Part shown: positions 2,965-19,238 of the stretch, in pieces
How positions within the stretch are numbered: position 1 is the first letter of the stretch
How the letters are laid out: the number at the start of each line of letters is the position of its first letter
Made by a program: the position numbers and the translations under genes
The notes under the pieces: generated by a model
Told to the model about the DNA's origin: nothing
The model's input: the letters and a program-made list of their open reading frames with translations, nothing else
The model's database searches: none
NCBI GenBank assembly: GCA_001566745.1
Contig: KQ964439.1
Location: 139,301 to 165,443 of the forward strand
Direction: 5' to 3'
Origin: Conidiobolus coronatus NRRL 28638
Taxonomy: Eukaryota; Entomophthoromycota; Entomophthoromycetes; Entomophthorales; Conidiobolaceae
Length of the DNA stretch: 26,143 nt

Positions 2965-5659
2965 CTAGTGAGTTGATGCTTGCTGAAGAGATTTATCAAT
3001 TTTATGAACTACTTCTCTAGCAGCAACTGGGATTTTAGTACCTGGACCGAATACTGCAGCAACTCCATGATCAAATAGGAATTGATAATCTTGAACAGGG
3101 ATAACACCACCTGCAATAACTAATTTATCATCAGCTCCAAGCTTCTTTAATTCTTCAATTAAGGCGGGAACTAAAGTTTTATGACCTGCAGCTTGAGAGG
3201 AAACACCTACTACGTGAACATCGGCATCAATGGCTTGACGAGCTACTTCTGCAGGAGTTTGGAAGAGAGGGCCAACATCGACATCAAATCCAAGATCAGC
3301 AAATCCAGAAGCAATAACCTTAGCACCACGATCGTGGCCATCTTGACCCATTTTGGCTACAAGCAATCTAGGGGGACGACCATGATCTTGAGTAAACTTA
3401 TTAATAGCATCTTGTGTTAAAGTGACTTCATCATGTTCACCATATTCAGACTTATAAGCGCCGCTGACAACTCTGTTTTGAGGTGAATGGCGACCAAATA
3501 CCTTTTCCAATGCATCTGAAATTTCACCAACAGTACATCTAGCTTTAGCAGCTTCAATAGATAATTCAAGCAAGTTACCCTTTCCAGTTTCAGCAGATTT
3601 GGTAAGGGCTTCAATGCAGGCTTGAGCTTTTTGGCTATCACGCTCGGCTTTTACCTTTTCAATTCTAGCGATTTGAGACTTACGTACTTTGGTATTATCA
3701 ATAGCTAAAATATCCAAGTCATCTTCCTTTTCTAATCTATACTTATTAACACCAACAATAGTTTCTTTACCGGAATCGATTCTAGCTTGACGCTTAGCAG
3801 CACTCTCTTCAATCTTTAACTTGGGCATACCAGAGTCAACGGCCTTAGCCATGCCACCCATCTCTTCAATTTCAGTGATAAGTTTAAGAGCAGCATCGTA
3901 AATGTCGTTGGTAAGTGATTCCATCATGTAAGAACCGCCCCAAGGGTCAGCGACCTTAGGAATCATAGCCTCTTCTTGTAAAATCAACTGGGTGTTACGA
4001 GCAATACGGGCACTGAATTCGGTAGGAAGACCAATAGCTTCGTCAAGAGCGTTAGTGTGAAGAGATTGAGTTCCTCCAAGAGTAGCAGCCATAGCTTCAA
4101 CAGTAGTACGAATGACATTATTATAAGGGTCTTGTTCTGTTAAAGACCATCCAGAAGTTTGAGAGTGAGTTCTCAATAACATTGATTTTTTATTCTTGGG
4201 CTGGAACTTTTCCTTGATTAAATGAGCCCATAATCTTCTAGCAGCTCTCATTTTAGCAATTTCCTATTAATTAATAAAATTAATCAGTTTGAATTTAATG
4301 AAATGATTAAGTTTACCATATAGAAATTCATTCCAATTGCCCAGAAGAATGAGAGACGAGGAGCAAACTCGTCAACAGTCATACCAGCTTTAATACCTAT
4401 CAAATAAAGTTAATATATATTAAGTTGTCTTTAATATATAATATTACCAGTTCTAACGTATTCTAAACCGTCGGCAATTGTGAAAGCTAATTCGAGTACA
4501 TTGTCAGCACCAGCTTCTTGTAAATGATAGCCGGAAATAGAAATAGAGTTATACTTAGGCATATTCTAATAGAGAGATGGTCAATAATGGCAAATTGATT
4601 ACATGTTGTTATATATTTTACCTTTGCAGTATAAGAGAAAATATCACCAATAATTCTCATTGAAGGCTCAGGAGGGTAAATAAAGGTATTACGCACCATG
4701 AACTCTTTAAGAATGTCATTTTGAATTGTACCAGCTAATTCACTAAGCTTAGCTCCCTATAATATCATTAATATTACTGTTATTTTACTTATTATTAACT
4801 TACTTGTTCTAAACCTGTGACGATATACATAGCTAGAATTGGCAATACTGCTCCGTTCATTGTCATTGATACAGACATTTTGTTAAGAGGGATACCATCA
4901 AATAAAATCTATTATAAGTCATTAACATATGATAATAATAAAATGCTAATATGCTTGCTTACTTTTGTATCTTCTACAGAGTCAATAGCTACACCTGCCA
5001 TACCTACATCACCTACAACTCTAGGGTGATCAGAATCATAACTAAAAAATATCAGAATAAGGTATATTGAATGTAATAATAAGTTTACCCTCTGTGAGTT
5101 GCCAAATCAAAAGCAACACTTAAACCTTGTTGACCAGCAGCTAAATTTTTTCTATAAAATTTATTACTTTCCTCTACAGTACTAAAACCAGCATACTATA
5201 AATTAATATTAGTTTTTGAATAAAATAAATATTTAATAATATTTTACTTGGCGAACTGTCCAAGGTCTATAGGTATACATACTAGCATAGGGGCCTCTTG
5301 TAAAAGGGAAACCACCGGGGATTTCTTCGGCAATGCCTTCTGTGTCTTTTTTTGTATATACAGGCTTTACTTTAATACCCTAAACAATTGTCAGCATACG
5401 TCTATCAATATTGATTTTTTGTTTTACTTCTGCAGTATTCCAAGTTAAAGTTTCTTCTGGGTCCTTGCCCTTTAGTTCCTTCTTAACTAATTCACTCCAT
5501 TCAGGATGTAAAGGAACTTTCCAAGTACCTGAAGAACTAGAGGAATAAGCTAAATACTAAACGTGCGATTAATAACTTTTATGCATCTATTACATTCCAT
5601 TATACCTTATTAAACTTAATATTATTGGGTTTTGATAATCTTGTGAACTGTCTCAACAT
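2965..5659 (-). CDS. mut: Methylmalonyl-CoA mutase, mitochondrial, adenosylcobalamin-dependent
   Basis: Ten exons (from the start: 5659-5606, 5556-5428, 5379-5248, 5195-5089, 5041-4963, 4908-4804, 4756-4622, 4565-4448, 4396-4317, 4263-2965) give 745 residues, close to the human enzyme. It converts methylmalonyl-CoA to succinyl-CoA, the last step of propionyl-CoA breakdown, using adenosylcobalamin. The first exon encodes exactly the first 18 residues, basic and without acids ([10 protein letters not shown]...), as in a mitochondrial targeting peptide. The catalytic barrel shows [31 protein letters not shown], the [10 protein letters not shown] active-site region and [15 protein letters not shown]. 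The C-terminal B12 domain has the base-off motif DGHDRG with the axial histidine at about residue 623, then VGVSS and AGGVIP. The SxL serine motif reads S-S-Q, an unusual change. All nine introns are 47-56 nt. Presence of this enzyme implies cobalamin use; the identification is secure. Confidence 0.97.
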
Positions 5660-16173: not shown

Positions 16174-19100
16174 ATGACTCCGAATAACGCAGACTTTAAC
16201 GAGCAAGTTCAAAATTTAACAGCTAAGCTTACTTGTCTCATATGGTAACACCAACAGTCTTATGATATATAAATATATTCACAGTTTTCTATAGTAAAGA
16301 TATTTATAAAAATGCTAGCACAATCAGTGAATGTGGAGATACATTTTGCGAGTAAGCTTTATTACTTAATTAATATAATCGTTTTATTAAAATGTTTTTG
16401 TAGTAAATGTATAAGAGAGCATATATCAGACTTTAACTCATGCTATGACTGTGGTAGCTTCGCTATACCTGTAAATGTTAAAAGTAACCCACCAATAAGA
16501 AACCTAGTTGAGCTATTACATGAATTAAGAACTCTTGGATCATCAGTAGAGTTTGATGATTCATTTTCGAATATATCAAACTTTAATTTAAGGTTATCAG
16601 AAAGTGATCATGGGAGTGCACGATTAAGTGCTATAAATGAAGAATCTGAAAAATTCGAAAATGATATTATACCAATGGAATTTACTCAATTAGATAACGT
16701 TCCTGTAAAATCACCTTTTATAATGGACGATATCATAAGCTTATCTCAAGCGCCATCTAATGAACATTTTGATAAAAAACACTCATCTAATTCTCAAAAT
16801 TTTGACTTTACTTCAACTCAGGACCCTGCTCAAAAAGCAACAGTTTCAGAACCAAGGAATTTATCAATAGAATTTAATGATAGCACTACCCAATTATCGA
16901 GTATTGCTAAACATCATTCTGAAATAGACGAGTTTATGGAGTTCTCTCCTATCAAAACTCAGAAAGCTGCTAATGATTCTCCTATTAGAATGTTGCTATC
17001 TCAGGTGGGTCCATCAGATGAGCCACTTAACAAAAAACGCTCCCAAAATTCTGAGACGGTTACTTCAACTCAGATGCAGTTTCAAAAACCATCACTACAA
17101 GATTTAGATAATCATATGGAGTTTTCTGAAGATGGAATGCTAAACGATACCTTTTTAGCATCTACACAAAATCCCAATCAACAACAATCTAATCGAAAAA
17201 CCACTGGAGATCAAGAAGCTTTTCTTCCAAATTCTCAAGAATTTAGCGTTATACACTCACATGCTCCACCATCTACCAGTGGAAGAGCCGAAAATGATAA
17301 AGTTACTCAAGAAAGCAGACACAGCGAAGATATGGAGCTATGCACGCCTCAAAATACACAACATGCTCAAAAGATTGGTATACTCGAAAAAATAAGCGAT
17401 ACAAATGATGATACTAGCGACACATCTTTCAATGGAATTGATGAACCTGCAATGTTAAGCATTGAAATAACCCCATCAGAAGATATTCCTACAGCTTCAG
17501 AAACGATAAAGGTAAAGCTTATTAACATTTTAAATATCTTCTTCTAATCATGACTTACAGGATCCTGTAAAAGTTGATCCTAAATCAGCTAAAGAGCCAG
17601 AATCTTTAGATAAGTTTGATTATATAGAAGTTGCCTCAAATTCTCAATTCGATGAGTCTACATTTAAAAATCAAACAGCAACTGAGGTAATCATATATTT
17701 TCAAAGCCCAAATACATTATTTAATTATCATGTAATAGGATGACTCTGCGCAAGCTGATACGCTTGAACTACCAATTACAAAATCTGATGTATCTCAAAT
17801 CAACGTAAATTTTTAATTCACTTATTCAAAAAATATTTTCTAATAATTTTTAGGAAATGGTTAAAACCAAGTTGAATATTAAGAAATCAAGAAAAAGATC
17901 TATTCAAGAGCCTGATCTCAAGAAGTTCAAAACTGAAAAAGCTTCTTCTATATCTGTATATTAATATTCATACTATAATTTATTTATCAACTAACTTTAC
18001 TAAATAGAATAAATTATCTGAAGATGCGTCAGGAATGAGTACTCCAGTATCTAAATCAAAAACTACTTCGTCCAAGACTAAAGTAAGTATATTAATAAGC
18101 ATACTTAACTTTATCATTTTATTTACTGTTATTTTTAGACTATTCCTACGCCTGATTCTGATACTTCTGAATGGGCTTGCTTGAAATGTACTTTGTTAAA
18201 TTCTTCCAAAAGGCGTAAATGTAGAGTATGCAATAGCCTTCGCTTTTCTTCTAAAAATGCAAATGGAAAGAAAGGTTTAAAAGTCAGTAGTCCTGAAGCA
18301 GATTCATCATTTGTAAAAAATACATCTCCTGCTAAAGCAGCTTCTAAACTAAAAACACCTAAACTTTTCAAAGACTCGAAACAAAGTACAAATAGTTCAA
18401 GTAAAGCTAAATCGCCTAATACAAATTATGCTATAAAATCTAAGCCTTGGGGAAGAGTATATTTAGCAACTACTGGACTTGATGATGATCTTAAGGTATA
18501 CTATTTATAACACTTTTTTACTTGTTTTTAATTTTAATTGTAGGAGCGATTAAAGCAAGATATTACATATCTTAAAGCAATTGGTGTAAATATTTCTTTG
18601 ACAACTAGTAAACCATATGACCAAAAAACTACTCATCTAGTTGGCAGCTATAGAGAACTAGAAAATGGGTGCCTTCGTAGTAACACATACCTCTTTGGCA
18701 TATTACTATCTCAAAATATTTTAAGCTATGATTGTAAGTATCGCAAAAATGAGATAAAGTATTTGTACTAACTATATTTTAGGGGTTATTCAAAGTATTG
18801 AAGCTGGAGGTCTTCTTGAAGAAGAGCCTTTTGTAGTATTGGGAGACTCTGTTGTATATCCTTGCGATGGACCAAAATTGGCTTTTGAAAGACCCATTGG
18901 CGAGGTAATAAGAATATTTCACAAATAGTAATATAATATTTAATTATAATTAGATACATCAACTATTTTCAAATGTCGAATTTCATTTTGATGGAAAATT
19001 TGATACTGGTGGTGCTAGCAAAGCAGATTTAAGAAACTTAGCCAAGATGGGGAAGGGCATAGTCAATCCAAAACCTCTAACCCGTGTTCAAGGTGTTAAT

Positions 19101-19238
19101 GACAATATGAAGTTAGTTATAATTCGTGATAGAATTGAAACACCATCCAAATCCATCCATAGCGATGATGATATATTTGTTCGTGACAAAAAGTGGTTTT
19201 TGGACTGTATTTCAACTGGAAAACTTGACTTAGCTTAA
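16174..19238 (+). CDS. BRCA1/BARD1-family protein: RING, SQ/TQ cluster, RanBP2-type zinc finger, tandem BRCT
   Basis: Eleven exons (16174-16244, 16295-16351, 16404-17511, 17561-17686, 17739-17804, 17854-17955, 18008-18082, 18139-18495, 18544-18733, 18783-18904, 18954-19238) join to 852 residues. BRCA1 and BARD1 form a nuclear E3 ligase that ubiquitylates H2A and supports homologous recombination. Seen here: an N-terminal RING with C21, C24, C37, D39, C42, C45, C56, C59, where Asp stands at the usual His, followed by a BARD1-like helix (LVELLHELRTL). Then comes a disordered region of about 450 residues rich in SQ/TQ and MEF motifs, and a zinc finger W547-x-C549-x2-C552-x10-C563-x2-C566. BRCT1 is at about 637-730 (YDWVIQSIEAGGLL) and BRCT2 at about 760-852 (WFLDC near the end). 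The linker VVYPCDGPKLAFERP and the second BRCT align by eye with BRCA1 and BARD1. I cannot decide between the two paralogues. Introns are 48-56 nt. Confidence 0.85.

What the first reader, a model, noticed from the sequence alone, without database searches (positions are those of the whole stretch)
16174..19238. BRCA1/BARD1-type protein in what looks like a fungal genome
The spliced gene has an N-terminal RING and a C-terminal tandem BRCT pair whose linker and second repeat resemble BRCA1/BARD1. Model Dikarya yeasts lack BRCA1 and BARD1, so a complete copy beside fungal SIP5 and SWA2-type genes suggests the complex was retained in an early fungal branch.
Basis: partly seen in the sequence, partly recalled or inferred. 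Interest (0 to 1): 0.75.

Follow-up and report, generated by a model that had tools for sequence, protein, structure and literature searches.

The report
BRCA1-like repair protein in a fungus
A gene in a fungal genome, likely from an early branch, is predicted to encode a protein with a RING, a zinc finger that may read ubiquitin and a BRCA1-like BRCT pair, so it would probably mark damaged DNA with ubiquitin, a job whose animal version (BRCA1-BARD1) the model yeasts have lost.

Summary
Eleven exons (16174-19238, +), joined by ten GT-AG introns of 48-56 nt, give an 852-residue protein with an N-terminal RING and a C-terminal BRCT pair. The BRCA1 resemblance lies in the first BRCT repeat and linker (z 16.0); the second repeat is near noise (z 1.0 to BRCA1, 3.5 to BARD1). 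MDC1, PTIP and TopBP1 are not the nearest families. The RING is not specifically BRCA1/BARD1-like and has Asp where the zinc-binding His belongs.

The genome is fungal; a B12-dependent mutase nearby points to a non-Dikarya lineage.

BRCA1 in early fungi is already in print (PMC11061109; PMC12818731). No partner was found, but those searches were insensitive. Best reading: a BRCA1-like, damage-regulated ubiquitin ligase, a new variant of a known kind; not filed as BRCA1 or BARD1, because tested features fail.

The parts
16174..19238 (+). Predicted gene, 11 exons: 16174-16244, 16295-16351, 16404-17511, 17561-17686, 17739-17804, 17854-17955, 18008-18082, 18139-18495, 18544-18733, 18783-18904, 18954-19238; 852 residues
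   Evidence: ten GT-AG introns of 48-56 nt, no in-frame stop before the last codon; the in-frame codon score is positive in 9 of 11 exons (about zero in exons 2 and 9) and the best of three frames in 10 of 11 (exon 1 is the exception)
16234..16452 (+). RING finger, residues 21-59, across exons 1-3 (C-x2-C ... C-x-D-x2-C-x2-C ... C-x2-C)
   Evidence: PF13923 30.1 bits (cut-off 27), PF00097 24.2 (cut-off 21)
16684..17798 (+). SQ/TQ cluster, residues 137-474 (low-complexity middle, exons 3-5; includes two introns)
   Evidence: 15 SQ/TQ in residues 96-540 against 6.4 expected, 5 of 10,000 shuffles reach it; 7 in 100 residues
18172..18231 (+). RanBP2/NZF-type zinc finger, residues 547-566 (W-x-C-x2-C-x10-C-x2-C), exon 8
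   Evidence: PF00641 15.5 bits, below the cut-off of 27; best PDB match ZRANB2 E 0.003; pattern in 0 of 20,000 shuffles of the protein
18439..18904 (+). First BRCT repeat and linker, residues about 636-758 (exons 8-10; includes two introns)
   Evidence: BRCA1 E 4.3e-6 over residues 674-776; z 16.0 to BRCA1 for residues 636-757
18954..19238 (+). Second BRCT repeat, residues 759-852, with stop codon (exon 11)
   Evidence: PF16589 24.9 bits (cut-off 27.3), residues 761-850; 24.6 bits for this exon alone

Best explanation
The gene is predicted to encode a BRCA1-like protein, RING - SQ/TQ cluster - NZF-like zinc finger - tandem BRCT, that likely works as a ubiquitin ligase subunit brought to damaged chromatin. 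Inferred steps: ATM/ATR-type kinases would phosphorylate the SQ/TQ cluster; the BRCT pair would dock on a damage-site protein; the RING, probably as a dimer through its flanking helices, would bind an E2 and place ubiquitin; the NZF-like finger would read ubiquitin already there and hold the ligase in place. Shown here: the open spliced reading frame, the four sequence features and the BRCA1-like first BRCT repeat plus linker. Inferred: all activities, any partner, and the pathway.
For: Gene model. RING over Pfam cut-off. BRCT nearest to BRCA1 in 177,635 distinct PDB sequences (E 4e-6), MCPH1 next (E 1e-3); BARD1, MDC1, PTIP, 53BP1 and TopBP1 not among the 22 listed at E 10 or better. Controls: the genome's own TopBP1/Rad4-like protein hits Rad4 and TopBP1 and lists no BRCA1; MDC1 hits PTIP, Brc1, Mdb1 and MCPH1, and BRCA1 only at E 0.02. 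BARD1's own BRCT gives the same order as the window gene, BRCA1 then MCPH1. z 16.0 for first repeat plus linker. Direct BLASTP to BARD1: 20% identity over 203 columns, E 5e-4 for the single comparison. Of 30 BRCA1 positions that I picked, 28 were aligned and 18 of those keep the same residue, R1699, G1706, W1718, G1738, P1749, K1750, W1837 and D1840 among them (numbering recalled). Ile at the BRCA1 I26 E2-contact position (sequence; role recalled). SQ/TQ cluster. NZF pattern.
Against: BRCA1 K1702, which binds the phosphate (recalled), is Thr, and M1775 of the +3 pocket is Gly; 10 of the 28 aligned picked positions differ. The second BRCT repeat gives z 1.0 to BRCA1 and 3.5 to BARD1. The BRCT pair scores no better to BARD1 (z 4.8) than to MDC1 (z 6.1). 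RING: the zinc ligand His is Asp, Pro after the seventh Cys is Tyr, and K65 is Gly (roles recalled). In the PDB the RING is nearest to PCGF5, RNF4, RING2 and RBBP6; neither BRCA1 nor BARD1 is among the 60 shown of 101, whereas BARD1's own RING does find BRCA1 (E 2.5e-5). NZF is below Pfam's cut-off, and its best PDB match, ZRANB2, binds RNA, not ubiquitin (binding recalled). No partner was found. The methylmalonyl-CoA mutase frame, not a repair protein, has 1.85 SQ/TQ per 100 residues, close to 1.88 for the whole window protein; only the middle region (3.37), which I chose after seeing the sequence, stands out. No homologues could be retrieved, so no tree was built.
Confidence: 0.58

Rival explanations
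1. It is an ordinary early-fungal BRCA1 orthologue with an unfound BARD1 partner, working as in animals and plants.
For: BRCT1 and linker nearest to BRCA1; BRCA1 homologues reported in early-diverging fungi (PMC11061109, passages and sections seen). A partner with split exons would have escaped: human BRCA1 and BARD1 BRCT queries found not even the window gene, and PF13923 missed its RING.
Against: K1702 is Thr, the His ligand is Asp, the RING is nearer to BARD1 (z 9.6) than to BRCA1 (z 4.5) and nearest to PCGF5 (z 15.7); BARD1 is mentioned 0 times in PMC11061109.
Confidence: 0.3
2. It is a chimera: a RING of another family (PCGF- or RBBP6-like) joined to a BRCA1/MCPH1-type BRCT pair, so the BRCA1 architecture is convergent.
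For: RING z 15.7 to PCGF5 and 14.0 to human RBBP6 against 4.5 to BRCA1; MCPH1, which has no RING (recalled), is the second PDB family for the BRCT pair.
Against: RING pairs of different families also reach z 12.0 (PCGF6 against human RBBP6) and 10.9 (BRCA1 against the genome's own RBBP6), and PCGF5 and RBBP6 were picked as top hits, so RING scores do not decide. The stretch after the RING has the BRCA1 spacing and an I-x2-L-V-E-x-L core (sequence), though TRIM and RAD18 RINGs have a similar one (recalled).
Confidence: 0.15
3. The RING exons and the BRCT exons are two genes, wrongly joined.
For: The long middle is low-complexity, and no transcripts were available.
Against: Exons 4-7 are open in the joined frame, score positive there (0.24 to 0.48 bits per codon) and are separated by introns of the same size as the rest.
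Confidence: 0.05

Closest known systems
BRCA1 (animals, plants)
   Same: N-terminal RING, long middle with an SQ/TQ cluster (that of BRCA1 recalled), C-terminal BRCT pair; first repeat and linker clearly alike
   Different: 852 residues against about 1,860 in human (recalled); NZF-like finger; RING His to Asp; BRCT K1702 to Thr; second repeat unlike
BARD1
   Same: RING plus BRCT pair; RING z 9.6 and second repeat z 3.5, both higher than to BRCA1
   Different: No ankyrin family and PF14835 at 12.1 bits, far under the cut-off of 35; BRCT pair overall z 4.8 against 15.6 to BRCA1
Early-diverging fungal 'BRCA1' (PMC11061109; Mucor/Rhizopus Brca1, KOG4362, PMC12818731)
   Same: Probably the same kind of gene in related fungi; reported expressed (PMC11061109), and disruption in Rhizopus microsporus gave a phenotype (PMC12818731, abstract and passages)
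   Different: 'RING' and 'BARD1' have 0 occurrences in PMC12818731; the passages seen of either paper describe no NZF or partner for it; its sequence could not be compared here
MCPH1, MDC1, PTIP, Crb2, TopBP1/Rad4 (other tandem BRCTs)
   Same: BRCT pair
   Different: No N-terminal RING (recalled); MCPH1 is a weak second match, the others are not among the 22 sequences at E 10 or better (presence of Crb2 in the PDB copy is recalled)

Membership tests
BRCA1 | C-terminal tandem BRCT of the BRCA1 type | tested here: met
   E 4e-6, z 15.6; carried by first repeat plus linker only (second repeat z 1.0)
BRCA1 | N-terminal C3HC4 RING with BRCA1-type sequence | tested here: not met
   RING present over Pfam cut-off, but the His ligand is Asp and z to BRCA1, 4.5, is the lowest of seven RINGs compared
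BRCA1 | Phosphoserine pocket S1655, G1656, K1702 | tested here: not met
   Thr and Gly at the first two by the MAFFT alignment (outside the local alignment), Thr at K1702
BRCA1 | RING heterodimer with BARD1 | tested here: inconclusive
   No partner; searches lack sensitivity for split exons
BRCA1 | Orthology by tree | not tested
   Protein database search failed five times and was then capped
BARD1 | BARD1-type RING (PF14835) | tested here: not met
   12.1 bits against a cut-off of 35
BARD1 | Ankyrin repeats (animal BARD1) | tested here: not met
   No ankyrin family among the 8 families at E 1 or better
MDC1, PTIP, TopBP1, Crb2/Rad9 and similar mediators | BRCT pair nearest to these families | tested here: not met
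   None of them among the 22 sequences at E 10 or better; MDC1's own neighbours differ. Crb2's presence in the PDB copy is recalled, so for Crb2 the test is weaker
NZF ubiquitin-binding zinc finger | W-x-C-x2-C-T-phi-x-N-x6-C-x-phi-C | tested here: met
   Pattern exact, with T-L and V at the contact places (sequence; pattern and contact places recalled)
NZF ubiquitin-binding zinc finger | Pfam PF00641 over cut-off | tested here: not met
   15.5 bits against 27; best PDB match is the RNA-binding ZRANB2
NZF ubiquitin-binding zinc finger | Binds ubiquitin | not testable with these tools
   Needs a binding assay
E3 ubiquitin ligase | Ubiquitin transfer with an E2 | not testable with these tools
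   Needs an assay; Ile at the I26 place is kept, the K65 place is Gly

The most novel reading that the evidence does not exclude
An undivided, BARD1-free BRCA1-type ligase: one chain in an early fungus carries the RING writer, its own ubiquitin-reading NZF finger and the BRCT dock, doing alone what animals and plants split between BRCA1 and BARD1, with the NZF taking the place of BARD1's reading of ubiquitinated H2A.
Probability: 0.2. Interest if true: 0.75.

Novelty: new variant of a known kind. Interest (0 to 1): 0.42.

Why it matters
If the NZF and the lack of a partner hold, an early fungus would show a one-chain form of the BRCA1-BARD1 ligase. That would let researchers ask which half came first and how ubiquitin reading was built in. 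A 17.5 Mb genome would also be a small system for it. Bare presence of BRCA1 in early fungi is already reported, so without those two points this is one more member of a known set.

Tried and rejected
Homologue search: failed, then capped; no fungal, plant or other relatives were obtained, so no RING or BRCT tree was made.

Structure: exon 11 alone folded without an alignment at mean pLDDT 37.3, useless; not searched further.

Partner: the 10 RING matches of PF13923 were all read by eye; none looked like BRCA1/BARD1. Flanks of 8 of those 10 places, fetched, were scanned only for a RING pattern, not with a BRCT profile. BRCT places lie on C131 (TopBP1/Rad4-like), C153 (Pescadillo) and in the window (C22), none on a contig with one of those 10 RINGs. 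PF14835 gave two places, a RING-TRAF-type and an RBBP6-like gene. BRCA2 OB1 gave nothing, but nothing rang in the 14 controls either.

Alignment A1 used as a PDB profile holds the window gene, BRCA1 and BARD1, so its ranking is biased and not used as evidence.

Considered and rejected: RNA-binding type of RanBP2 finger. The best PDB match is of that type (ZRANB2), but most of its Asn/Trp/Arg contacts are absent here (contacts recalled).

Full report
What was checked. The finding claims a spliced gene at 16174-19238 with an N-terminal RING and a C-terminal BRCT pair of BRCA1/BARD1 type in a fungal genome. Splicing by GT-AG gives 11 exons and exactly 852 residues. The ten introns are 48-56 nt long and 12-26% G+C, against 34.5% for the exons. 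No exon has an in-frame stop before the final TAA. With codon usage taken from seven other reading frames of the genome, the in-frame score is the best of the three frames in 10 of 11 exons and positive in 9 of 11; exon 1 is beaten by one frame that holds three stops, and exons 2 and 9 score about zero. Exons 4-7, which join the RING part to the BRCT part, score 0.24 to 0.48 bits per codon in frame. A two-gene reading is therefore unlikely, though no transcripts were available.

Domains. Pfam finds the RING over cut-off (PF13923, residues 21-59, 30.1 bits), a BRCT below cut-off at 761-850 (24.9 of 27.3), an RTT107-type BRCT below cut-off at 631-735 (17.9 of 27) and a RanBP2-type zinc finger below cut-off at 546-571 (15.5 of 27). 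The finger has the exact spacing W-x-C-x2-C-x10-C-x2-C at 547-566, which none of 20,000 shuffles of the protein shows. Its PDB matches, 40 at E 10 or better and all weak, begin with ZRANB2 (E 0.003) and include YAF2, NUP153, RYBP, RBM5, NPL4 and TAB2; these bind RNA, Ran or ubiquitin (recalled), so the match alone does not tell the ligand. The Thr-Leu and Val at the contact places look more like the ubiquitin-binding NZF type than the RNA-binding type (contact places recalled). Nor did it mention the SQ/TQ cluster: 15 sites in residues 96-540, 6.4 expected, reached by 5 of 10,000 shuffles, with 7 in one stretch of 100 residues. Such clusters mark targets of ATM/ATR-type kinases (recalled), and BRCA1 has one (recalled). 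As a caution, I chose the region after seeing the sequence, and the methylmalonyl-CoA mutase frame has 1.85 SQ/TQ per 100 residues, as many as the whole window protein (1.88); the middle region has 3.37, and the four other control frames 0.22 to 0.61.

Which BRCT family. Against 177,635 distinct PDB sequences the BRCT pair matches BRCA1 first (E 4.3e-6), then microcephalin (E 1.1e-3); S. pombe Brc1 is at E 1.0, and a phage tail protein at E 0.84 shows the noise level. BARD1, MDC1, PTIP, 53BP1 and TopBP1, which other calls show to be in this PDB copy, are not among the 22 sequences at E 10 or better; nor is Crb2, whose presence in the copy is recalled. Three controls: human BARD1's BRCT pair gives the same order, BRCA1 then microcephalin; MDC1's gives PTIP, Brc1, Mdb1 and microcephalin, with BRCA1 at E 0.02; the genome's own TopBP1/Rad4-like protein on C131 gives Rad4 and TopBP1 and no BRCA1 among 24. 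In shuffle tests the pair scores z 15.6 to BRCA1, 6.1 to MDC1, 4.8 to BARD1, 2.9 to the genome's Pescadillo BRCT and 0.6 to 3.6 to four stretches of the C131 protein; BARD1 to BRCA1 scores 22.0, BRCA1 to MDC1 8.9 and BARD1 to MDC1 4.9. So the pair is BRCA1-like, but no nearer to BARD1 than to MDC1; a direct BLASTP to BARD1 gives 20% identity over 203 columns, E 5e-4 for that single comparison. Split in two, the first repeat plus linker carries the signal (z 16.0 to BRCA1, 7.1 to MDC1, 3.2 to BARD1); the second repeat gives 1.0 to BRCA1, 3.5 to BARD1 and -1.2 to MDC1, with 4.5 for BARD1 against BRCA1 as yardstick.

Functional residues. I picked 30 BRCA1 positions (numbering recalled). In the local alignment 28 of them are aligned and 18 keep the same residue, among them R1699, G1706, W1718, G1738, P1749, K1750, W1837 and D1840; 10 differ, among them K1702, which holds the phosphate (recalled) and is Thr, and M1775, which is Gly. 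S1655-G1656 lie outside that local alignment and stand against Thr-Gly in the MAFFT alignment. Phosphopeptide binding of the classic kind is thus in doubt. In the RING the His ligand is Asp (C-G-D-T-F-C), the residue after the seventh Cys is Tyr and the K65 place is Gly, while the Ile of the E2 contact (I26) is kept (roles recalled).

The RING family cannot be told. In the PDB the RING is nearest to PCGF5, RNF4, RING2, RBBP6 and PCGF6; BRCA1 and BARD1 are not among the 60 shown of 101. BARD1's own RING does find BRCA1's, at E 2.5e-5, so a RING of this kind could have been recognised. z is 15.7 to PCGF5, 14.0 to human RBBP6, 12.5 to PCGF6, 9.6 to BARD1 and 4.5 to BRCA1, but RING pairs of different families reach 12.0, and PCGF5, PCGF6 and RBBP6 were chosen because they were top hits. 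The RING therefore does not support BRCA1/BARD1 descent, and is too short to exclude it.

Partner. Whole-genome searches by exon: PF00533 gave two places on C131; PF16589 gave four places: C153 (Pescadillo), two on C131 and the window gene; PF14835 gave two, on C18 and C26, which are a RING-TRAF-type and an RBBP6-like gene; PF13923 gave 10, all read by eye, none BRCA1/BARD1-like. The window's own RING and BRCT sequences found only themselves. Human BRCA1 and BARD1 BRCT queries found nothing, not even the window gene, and PF13923 missed the window's RING, so absence of a partner is not shown.

Which organism. The assembly has 17.5 Mb in 186 contigs. Zn2Cys6 clusters (Pfam's fungal binuclear cluster) occur at 18 places, one on the window's own contig C22, and in 0 of 14 control genomes, so the contig is taken as fungal. 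A B12-dependent methylmalonyl-CoA mutase lies at 2965-4263 (-). PMC8085122 (search listing and passages, part of the abstract among them) reports B12 use in all non-Dikarya lineages and its probable loss at the base of Dikarya and in Mucorinae, so the genome is likely non-Dikarya and not Mucorinae. The species was not identified; the FANCD2 and rRNA searches did not complete.

Prior print. PMC11061109 (abstract, passages, sections 5, 11, 12 and the first of two parts of section 13) maps 40 Fanconi reference proteins, BRCA1 among those listed, on 183 fungal proteomes and reports BRCA1 expressed in early-diverging fungi; BARD1 has 0 occurrences. PMC12818731 (abstract, sections 9 and 11 and passages) studies a BRCT protein named Brca1 (KOG4362) in Mucor and Rhizopus; the terms RING and BARD1 have 0 occurrences. 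PMC3969565 (passages; [quoted passage not shown] PMC8483008 (passages) states that databases hold no fungal BRCA1. In eight paper searches on BRCA1, BARD1 or BRCT with fungi, plants or RanBP2-type fingers no listed title or abstract opening described a RING-NZF-BRCT protein; only the listed rows were seen (at most 15 per search), apart from the papers named here and passages of PMC4102429, PMC8131943 and PMC10406608, which did not bear on it. BARD1 had 0 occurrences in the 12 papers listed.

Verdict. A real, BRCA1-like gene with an architecture that these searches did not find in print; likely a damage-regulated ubiquitin ligase subunit. It works like BRCA1 in plan, but is not filed as BRCA1 or BARD1 because the phosphate-pocket Lys, the RING type and the BARD1 features were tested and not met.

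Noticed in passing
window 2965-4263 (-): B12-dependent methylmalonyl-CoA mutase exon (PF01642 and PF02310), a non-Dikarya marker in a fungal genome.
   Followed up: partly
L001 1-2562 (+) (G000:C131): TopBP1/Rad4-like protein with several BRCT repeats in one open frame of at least 854 residues, although the window gene has ten introns.
   Followed up: partly
L011 1492-2058 (+) and downstream (G000:C18): RING followed by a Sina/TRAF-type zinc finger match (below Pfam's cut-off) and what look by eye like WD40 repeats; its RING scores 19.4 bits with the BARD1-type model, more than the window gene's 12.1.
   Followed up: no
   Followed up: no
window 16245-18953: Introns are very uniform (48-56 nt), and 7 of 10 carry a YTAAY motif that starts 10-18 nt before the end of the intron.
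   Followed up: partly
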